64,000 nt of DNA from contig JAANDG010000253.1 of NCBI GenBank assembly GCA_036852015.1, forward strand, positions 62,001 to 126,000. Direction: 5' to 3'. The notes below the pieces were generated by a model. The model saw only the letters and a program-made list of their open reading frames with translations. It made no database searches and was not told the DNA's origin. Source of the stretch: Pelodera strongyloides. Lineage: Eukaryota; Nematoda; Chromadorea; Rhabditida; Rhabditidae. Positions 38,301 through 41,300 of this stretch are shown piece by piece (positions within the stretch are counted from its first letter, which is position 1; each line of letters starts with the position of its first letter). The position numbers and the translations under genes are program-made.

Positions 38301-41300
38301 ATCTAAATATGAGCCTCAAAGAGTAAATCGAAAATAAGAAATTTATAAATAATCACCTTCCAACCATTCTAAACCAAGGGAATCGATCGTAGAATGGGTC
38401 GTGTCCCATCAGGGCGTCCATCACCGGATCGTCCGGGCTCACCGGGGACATCTCGGCCTCGGTCTCGTACATGTCCCGCATCGACTCCAGACGTTGTCTA
38501 AATCGATACTAATGTCAAGTTTTGATCCTAATCGGATACTAGTATCAAGGTAGCTCCTCAAGACCAATATCGCTGTTTGAATAAAACTCTAGTAAGTTAT
38601 AGTTATAAAAAATCACCACACAGTAGATTTATGGAAATATTGACAGAAAGGTATCGTAAGAATAACTATTGCCAACTAGAAAAGGTTCTCGGAAATCACA
38701 AATGCAAGAAAAAGATGTAAAAATAGCGCAACTTGTTAATTTTTTGTGTGAATGGAGTAAAGTCTGAAACGGTCCCTTTGGTGAAACAAATGATCATAAT
38801 TACGGTACTGATTTCCCTTACTTATTCCGCAGGCAAAAAATCGATAACTGTTTTGTGTGAGCCCGTTTTTTATAGCTTCAATGGATATTCTGTTAGACGC
38901 TTTAGGGACATAATACCTAAAAGAGTACATTTCTGTTAGAGTAAAACAAATTGTTTCTTTATAATTAATAGAAGCAAGCCAGTTGTTCTATAAACTACAC
39001 AATCAAAACAAACACGCTCGAGCATCGACCACTCACCAGGCTACTAGTTACTGTATGTTACAGACAACAGCACGGTGCTAAAATAGTGCAAGACGGGGAA
39101 ACAACCAAGCAAAAATCCACACATAAAAAAGTGTTGAAGGTGAAATGTATTAATAAATCAACCAATTATAGTGACGTAATCGAAAAGTTATATTAAAGCG
39201 GTATGGCACGAGAGTTTTCAAAGCTAAACTACTCCATATTATGTATACATGGGAATATTCTGGAATATTCTGGAATATATTGTTGTTCAGAATGTTCGAA
39301 ACCACATGTGCTGAACCGCTTTAATAAAATTGAAAATGTGCAAGTCCGTGTTAGTACACTTAGCCCCAAGCCCCAACTGATTGTATAAGCGGTAAGCCAT
39401 TATTACACAACCCCTACCTGTCAGGAATAAGTCTGGCTGGGTTGAGTTGTAGCGCTGCTAACCACCCTTCGGTAACGCTCTGGTAGGGAGGTTCGTTCGG
39501 AGTTCCGATCTCTGAGACTTCTGCGTTGTAGTGACAACGCATATCCTCCAGACGCTGCCTACAACCAGCAACGCTCTATTCCGGGTTACGGTAAAAAATA
39601 ACTTATTACGGGAGGAATTGACAGGAGCATACCGTATACCTTCGTTAAAGCATTATTTACACTGTCGTTGGCATGTGGCATGTGCTCTCATTGACTAAGC
39701 AAATACAGGACGATTTTACCGCTTTAAATAAGACCCTGGATTTGGGGAAGACTGTTCTTTCAGTTTTTACCATCATGCAACACAGCAAGCGTTTTGGGGA
39801 AGACACAAAGAAACACATTGTACAAGGGTAAAGTGATCTGCTCAATGTGTCGTTCTAAACTATGAGAGACGGAATAAAAAGTTAAATAAACAAATTTGCA
39901 TACCCTTGCTGAGTCTGACTTTACTGGCATCACGAGGGTACTGTAGTGTTAGTTGTCAAAATTTCAAGCGTTATTGCACGTGGTTTTGTGAAGTGTATAG
40001 TGGACAACTGCACTCCTATGTAGCAACGAAAAGATTGCACAGAAGAACACACAATGAAACACAGTTTGCATATACGTGGAAATGCTAATGTCCAGTATAA
40101 GCTTTCCAAACCATATGTCATACCACTTTAAAGCAATGAAAGCGGGGGTTAGTGAAAATCGTGCAGCACTCACAAAACTACCCAAAAACCGTTTCAGACT
40201 TGTTTCAGTTAAAGCAACAACAGAACAAAAATTGGGAATAAGAAATGTAAACAGAGGAAAAGTAGCAATAAGCACCCGTAAAGCAGAAATAAGACACATT
40301 TTAAAATATACCTCACAGAAATACACCGAAAAGTTCATAGGAGTTCTAATATGTAATCAAAAATCAAGAAAAAAAATTGCATGCTCCTCTAATGCTTGCT
40401 CGTACAGAATTTTGTCTGGGGTCCACACCACACTATACCTATTCTAAGGAGCTTAGAGTATTGTGTTATTTGGTAACACTGCGGCTATACAAGGATCTGA
40501 GCAATCATAACTGCAAAGCTGAAAATAAGAACTAAGGTTCAAGATTAAGAATGCAAACTCACTTTAGCTTCTCGATGCTCCAGTAGTGAGTGGCTCCGTT
40601 CTTGAGGTCTTGGACTTGAATGGCCACAACGGTCTTCGGGTAGGGCCGCAGGGTGAGGTCCTCCCCGGGAGGGAGCAGGTCGGGAGGGAGGGGAGAATAC
40701 ATCGTGTCGGTGAGCAGGACGAATTGGAATTGCACCTGAATGCGTAGAGTTAATTAGCATATGGGACTTCAAGTTGGCGGACGCAGAAAAAAGTCTGCTT
40801 GGAAATAACTATTTATTGATTTAGAATTGCTAGAGCGGTCCAAAATATGCACAGCCGTAGCAAAAGATAATTATAACACTTGGAATATTCGGCCCTTGCG
40901 CCGCGCGCATATGGCAAAAGAGGGCGTGCTGCAAAAAATGGCACACCAGTGGAATAGGTCATAAGTCATAATTGTGGAAAGGAAAAGAGCGGAAGAAGTT
41001 ATTGTTCTACCTTTTTCTTGAGTTCCACAGAAATTGCGTTGGCTTCCTTGATGAATATAGCATTTCCCCAGAGGTCGTCCCTCACGGACGTAAACTGATG
41101 ATATCTCCACTTCACCGCACAACGCCGCGCTATACGCTCCTGATCCGGACTCCATTTGCATTCTTCCGCTGCAATGTATAATCTTATAATTATATAGTTA
41201 ATTATCCTAGCTAATTATCATAACAAGTGGATAATGTTGTGAATCGCGGTGGTTGCGGTACTCCTATGTGAGTGTTCGTGTTCCGCTCTTTTTGGCTAAC

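What the first reader, a model, noticed from the sequence alone, without database searches (positions are those of the whole stretch)
38357..39558. Candidate mutually exclusive exons in the kinesin-3 gene unc-104
Two neighbouring exons of identical length (141 nt), identical phases and homologous first codons ([14 protein letters not shown]) lie between [16 protein letters not shown] and [13 protein letters not shown] exons. One encodes the conserved [10 protein letters not shown] segment. The other replaces it with an unrelated sequence ending LIPDR. Swapping would change the stalk just behind the CC2/CC3 part and could alter autoinhibition or cargo choice. KIF1A has one copy of this segment as far as I know.
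Basis: partly seen in the sequence, partly recalled or inferred. Interest (0 to 1): 0.8.

Follow-up and report, generated by a model that had tools for sequence, protein, structure and literature searches.

The report
Optional duplicated exon in nematode unc-104
A nerve-transport motor gene of a roundworm carries two look-alike neighbouring exons, but related proteins carry both pieces one after the other or lack only the first, so this looks like an old exon duplication with an optional extra piece and not like either-or exons.

Summary
The two exons are real. Exon A (39558-39418) and exon B (38497-38357), minus strand, are each 141 nt with matching phases, in an unc-104/KIF1A gene. A is the best match to B among 11,503 open 47-aa frames of the window, but the likeness sits in the first third (8 of 16 residues, then 4 of 31). 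"Mutually exclusive" is not supported. Of 217 related proteins fetched, 120 carry A and B in one chain, 95 carry B without A, 2 carry A with B truncated or cut off, and 0 join A directly to the downstream exon. A+B occurs in nematodes and insects; B without A includes the C. elegans reference protein. B is the whole Pfam KIF1B module (PF12423); a hypothetical A-only protein falls below its cut-off. Best reading: an ancient tandem duplicate in which B is always kept and A is an optional in-frame 47-residue insert. Most of this rests on predicted proteins from capped lists, and I had no RNA reads, so exclusive use in this species is unlikely but not excluded.

The parts
40563..40735 (-). upstream exon, ends ...[12 protein letters not shown]; shared by both protein forms
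   Evidence: open frame, donor AAA|GTGAGT, conserved in relatives
39559..40562 (-). intron before exon A, 1004 nt (median of 27 other introns of the model 275 nt)
39418..39558 (-). exon A (141 nt), optional duplicate [47 protein letters not shown]
   Evidence: acceptor scores below all 27 others of the model, donor above 25 of 27; one match in the own genome
38498..39417 (-). intron between A and B, 920 nt
38357..38497 (-). exon B (141 nt), the complete Pfam KIF1B module PF12423 with [15 protein letters not shown]
   Evidence: Pfam 1e-14, profile positions 3-46 of 46; acceptor also below all 27 others
37906..38027 (-). downstream exon [18 protein letters not shown]...
31441..50145 (-). unc-104/kinesin-3 gene, rough 32-exon model plus exon A; first codons and some exons missing, and the junctions near 43940, 36549 and 33635 unreliable
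   Evidence: Pfam order Kinesin, Kinesin_assoc, FHA, KIF1B, DUF3694, PH

Best explanation
A and B are an old tandem duplication inside the kinesin-3 gene unc-104. B is the original exon: it encodes the whole KIF1B module (PF12423) and is in every normal mRNA. A is a shortened and diverged copy that is spliced in ahead of B, in frame, as an optional extra segment, giving either upstream-A-B-downstream or upstream-B-downstream. Because A starts with the same QRLExMR helix motif as B, insertion keeps the helix that begins in the upstream exon (EKLK-QRLExMR) and pushes B and the beta domain behind it further away on a flexible linker of about 30 residues, changing reach in the stalk without replacing the conserved module. 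Shown: exon anatomy, homology, A+B and B-only protein forms in relatives, loss of the module in an A-only protein. Inferred: that A is optional in this species, that its weak acceptor and long flanking introns reflect regulated inclusion, the linker role, and any effect on autoinhibition or cargo.
For: A+B in one chain in 120 of the 217 proteins fetched by three searches: 31 nematode and 89 insect proteins, among them Caenorhabditis, Haemonchus, Steinernema, Ascaris, Elaeophora, Panagrolaimus and Trichuris. B without A in 95 of 217: 6 nematode or nematode-like, 1 mollusc, 88 fish proteins (KIF1B or unnamed kinesins, highly redundant). The C. elegans protein P0124 is B-only, and its residues D948, A950, D1497 and M1540 agree with the C52E12.2a numbering in PMC9005198. 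P0125 (1599 aa = 4,797 nt on a 5,124-nt contig) is an uninterrupted B-only frame, which I take to be a transcript; P0145 (994 aa on 5,228 nt) is similar but less clear. The hookworms Ancylostoma (A+B) and Necator (B-only) have identical B segments. Exon A acceptor below all 27 others of the model, donor above 25 of 27, flanking introns 1004 and 920 nt against a median of 275. Models: helix 230-248 in the A+B protein ends inside A, residues 252-318 are below pLDDT 50, a helix at 281-295 is the start of B; in the B-only protein helix 172-189 runs straight into B.
Against: Most relatives are gene predictions, and a predictor tends to join two in-frame exons even if the cell never does. The search lists were capped at 120 and clusters at 90% identity can hide further isoforms. 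B-only species may lack exon A in the genome and not skip it; I could not read their genomic DNA. No single species was seen in both forms. B's acceptor is also weak (below all 27 others), which would fit regulated use of B too. Equal length of A and B is common in the insect pairs (11 of 19). The structure models are poor (mean pLDDT 54.7 and 55.1). A documented C. elegans unc-104 cassette exon in PMC2265522 is not a multiple of three, so it is a different exon and gives no support.
Confidence: 0.7

Rival explanations
1. Both exons are constitutive: every unc-104 mRNA of this species contains A and then B, so A is just a fixed addition to the stalk.
For: 31 of 39 nematode or nematode-like proteins fetched have A+B; A is well conserved in five species (0.68 to 0.83 identity to the window in Caenorhabditis auriculariae, Haemonchus, C. 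briggsae, Mesorhabditis and Steinernema).
Against: Six of the 39 lack A, among them the C. elegans reference and the uninterrupted P0125; weak acceptor and long introns around A; A is poorly conserved in wider comparison (0.32-0.55 identity in Toxocara, Elaeophora, Panagrellus, Pristionchus, Trichuris and two insects).
Confidence: 0.2
2. A and B are mutually exclusive, and the A+B proteins are artefacts of gene prediction.
For: Adjacent homologous exons, same phases, both acceptors weak, equal length in the window and in 11 of 19 distinct insect pairs.
Against: 0 of 217 proteins join A to the downstream exon, also 0 of the 19 hits of the search scored on A and a few flanking residues, where A-only forms were not handicapped; A+B appears across nematodes and in many separately annotated insect isoforms; A-only loses PF12423 and the [10 protein letters not shown] motif; co-inclusion keeps the frame.
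Confidence: 0.07
3. Exon A is dead or never spliced in this species.
For: Weak acceptor, no RNA evidence available.
Against: Open frame over its length, while the two other frames of this strand each have a stop, strong donor, 0.68-0.83 identity to A of five nematode species, best E 2.3e-18.
Confidence: 0.03

Closest known systems
UNC-104/KIF1A kinesin-3 of other nematodes and insects with A+B in tandem (e.g. P0003 Haemonchus, P0012 C. briggsae, P0066 Zootermopsis)
   Same: same order upstream-A-B-downstream; QRLExMR-like start in most copies (the B start of the four Pristionchus proteins differs)
   Different: lengths vary in nematodes (A 44-57 aa, B 41-52 aa in 30 distinct pairs, 1 equal)
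C. elegans UNC-104, 1584 aa (P0124; numbering of C52E12.2a)
   Same: same upstream and downstream segments and the same KIF1B module
   Different: no exon A segment
Fish KIF1B
   Same: extra segment at about the same place in the stalk; PF12423 matched twice in P0128
   Different: the extra segment follows B and repeats its second half (DPFYDRSPWF), not the first half; I take it for an independent expansion
Tandem exon duplication as a class (PMC9013439, abstract and passages seen)
   Same: neighbouring homologous exons in one gene
   Different: its abstract says recent studies link such pairs to mutually exclusive choice; here the copies are used together or the first is absent

Membership tests
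Mutually exclusive exon cluster | adjacent homologous exons | tested here: met
   (homology over the first third only)
Mutually exclusive exon cluster | same phases, each usable alone in frame | tested here: met
Mutually exclusive exon cluster | only one copy per mRNA | tested here: not met
   in relatives 120 of 217 proteins have both and 0 join A to the downstream exon; protein models, not reads, and not from this species
Mutually exclusive exon cluster | either copy can fill the same structural role | tested here: not met
   an A-only protein falls below the PF12423 cut-off
Mutually exclusive exon cluster | a mechanism that enforces exclusion (frame, short intron, competing RNA structures) | tested here: inconclusive
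   frame and intron length do not enforce it; RNA structures not tested
Cassette exon | forms with and without the exon in the same species | not tested
   only different species compared; no RNA reads available
Kinesin-3 UNC-104/KIF1A | kinesin motor, FHA, KIF1B, DUF3694 and PH domains in this order | tested here: met
   on the spliced window model

The most novel reading that the evidence does not exclude
Exon A is a regulated, perhaps neuron-type-specific cassette, kept since the common ancestor of nematodes and insects, that lengthens the linker between the coiled-coil helix and the stalk beta domain of UNC-104 and so tunes autoinhibition or cargo handling; fish KIF1B reached a comparable lengthening by an independent duplication of the other half of the same module.
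Probability: 0.3. Interest if true: 0.55.

Novelty: new member of a known kind. Interest (0 to 1): 0.3.

Why it matters
It corrects a tempting mis-reading: equal length, equal phase and homology do not by themselves make two exons mutually exclusive. It also points to a spot in the UNC-104/KIF1A stalk where insects and nematodes (A before B) and fish KIF1B (a second partial copy after B) each carry an extra duplicated piece. Constructs made from the C. elegans reference protein lack the A segment (P0124). Suppressors D948N and A950V of a PH-domain mutant lie in the stalk about 120 residues behind the B module (PMC9005198, first of two parts of its text read; positions checked).

Tried and rejected
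Mutual exclusion was tested against relatives and rejected as the best reading. An unc-104 cassette exon in PMC2265522 looked like support, but its length is not a multiple of three and its developmental change was not confirmed by RT-PCR, so I dropped it (section 6, part 1 read). The AVM/PVM microexon of C. elegans unc-104 in PMC12084633 lies in the motor domain and is a different exon (passages). A passage of PMC4946901 names unc-104 in a set of genes under a heading on UNC-75 mRNA targets, without an exon. MBL-1-dependent unc-104 splicing in PMC11524483 names no exon in the passages seen. A fly exon of unc-104 in the same position as a mouse one, in PMC8797185, is not located in the passage seen. 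Passages of PMC8378409, PMC10470942, PMC10945585 and PMC10689924 gave nothing on this exon. A solved-structure search with the A+B region found nothing at E 0.01. A recalled mammalian KIF1A exon 25b could not be checked: two searches gave 0 papers, a third gave nothing on it in what I saw, and the original paper is not held. That this exon pair is undescribed rests on searches and on the passages seen; supplements could not be read.

Weak points: the gene model was anchor-driven. At 43987 my first model read through a probable GC donor (GAG|GCGAGT), adding 16 wrong residues outside the scored regions; I left them out. Intron motifs (one TGCATG at 39779) were looked up without a proper test; with 27 on that strand in 64 kb, one in this intron is unremarkable. 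The A/B counts lean on lists capped at 120 of about 8,000 hits and on redundant isoforms (44 insect proteins share one identical segment). The profile comparison of A and B gave probability 54.5% and P-value 1.8e-05.

Full report
What is there. The window belongs to a 160-Mb assembly of a nematode, judging by its closest relatives (inference). On the minus strand a rough 32-exon model from 50145 to 31441 encodes a kinesin-3: Pfam finds the kinesin motor, Kinesin_assoc, FHA, KIF1B, DUF3694 and PH in that order. The exons of the finding sit between the exon ending [12 protein letters not shown] (40563) and the one starting AFVYLSNLL (38027). Both are 141 nt, and all four ways of joining them (A, B, both, neither) stay open.

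Are they related? A is the best ungapped match to B of 11,503 open 47-residue frames in the window (score 24, next 14), and 1 of 2,000 shuffles scored as well in a global alignment. The identity is 8 of 16 in the first third and 4 of 31 after that. An A-only protein matches only positions 1-14 of the 46-position KIF1B profile. In many insect proteins the two copies are more alike in the first third (QRLELMRHVYNEDSSPSTPE and [22 protein letters not shown]). So A is a partial or strongly diverged tandem duplicate. Equal length is rare in nematodes (1 of 30 distinct pairs) but common in the insect pairs (11 of 19).

How are they used? A search scored on A and a few flanking residues (model residues 795-850) found 19 proteins, all named as nematodes, among 34 candidates. 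In 17 of the 19 A is followed by a complete B, in P0008 by a truncated B, and P0010 ends soon after A. A search with A+B (7,996 hits, 120 listed) added nematodes and 89 insect proteins with A+B. A search built to favour B without A (7,998 hits, 120 listed) brought up the C. elegans reference (P0124), C. japonica, Necator, the unnamed P0125 and P0145, a mollusc and fish KIF1B, besides Trichuris with A+B; Steinernema hermaphroditum (B-only) had come up. Altogether 217 proteins: 120 A+B (119 by script, plus P0016 read by eye), 95 B without A, 2 with A but no complete B (P0008, P0010), 0 with A joined to the downstream exon. Among the 39 nematode or nematode-like ones: 31, 6, 2, 0. Left out of the count: P0001, the window's own exon A. 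P0027 has a visibly repeated gene model; it is counted as A+B but left out of the segment comparisons.

Why A is unlikely to replace B. B matches PF12423 over positions 3-46 of 46. In the 37-sequence alignment D311 to R316, P318, W319, F320, G324 and R325 of P0004 are invariant, and B's end forms the start of a beta strand continuing into the next exon (residues 320-329 of P0004; block 321-330 has pLDDT 86). An A-only protein has no PF12423 above the cut-off. A is also the more variable piece in most comparisons: identity to the window 0.83 to 0.32 for A and 0.89 to 0.53 for B over 12 proteins, although A is the better conserved one in two of them, C. auriculariae and Haemonchus, and equal in P0020.

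Proposed working. In the A+B model a helix from the upstream exon ends in A, a low-confidence stretch follows, and B's own helix comes later; in the B-only model the helix runs directly into B. A may thus be a spacer that keeps the helix start. Mean pLDDT is only about 55, so this is a suggestion. The splice sites fit optional use: A's acceptor scores below all 27 others, its donor above 25 of 27, its flanking introns are 1004 and 920 nt against a median of 275. B's acceptor is also below all 27 others, which I cannot explain.

Limits. No RNA reads could be examined. Predictors like to join in-frame exons, so A+B models are weaker evidence than reads; isoforms may be hidden in 90% clusters or below the 120 listed; B-only species may have lost A. 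The C. elegans B-only form agrees with the residue numbers used by geneticists (PMC9005198), and P0125 looks like a transcript (4,797 coding nt on a 5,124-nt contig).

Verdict. Observation confirmed; exclusive use not supported; optional in-frame insertion of an ancient tandem duplicate is the best reading. Ordinary in kind, mildly interesting for its age and for its place in the stalk.

Noticed in passing
window 43986-43745, minus strand: The intron after RELKEE seems to start with GC (GAG|GCGAGT), a GC-AG intron; relatives such as P0003 read RELKEEVNKLR.
   Followed up: partly
window 47557-44710, minus strand: A 2848-nt intron in the motor-domain part, about ten times the median of the gene; C. 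elegans has a touch-neuron microexon in the motor domain of unc-104 (PMC12084633, passages). Not searched for here.
   Followed up: no
window 1445-29108, plus strand: Kazal domains (1445, 8322) and a laminin G domain (28839) on the plus strand, perhaps one agrin-like gene (recalled) lying tail to tail with unc-104.
   Followed up: partly
window 56788-57420, minus strand: A 211-aa open frame with several hydrophobic stretches; no Pfam match at 0.01.
   Followed up: partly
P0128 and P0204 (fish KIF1B), behind the B module: Another duplication at about the same place: an extra segment ending DPFYDRSPWFTLVGR or DPFYDRSPWFILVGR, PF12423 matched twice in P0128.
   Followed up: partly
P0008 (Nippostrongylus): Predicted protein with A plus only the first part of B, without the [10 protein letters not shown] half; perhaps an annotation error or an alternative donor inside B.
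   Followed up: no
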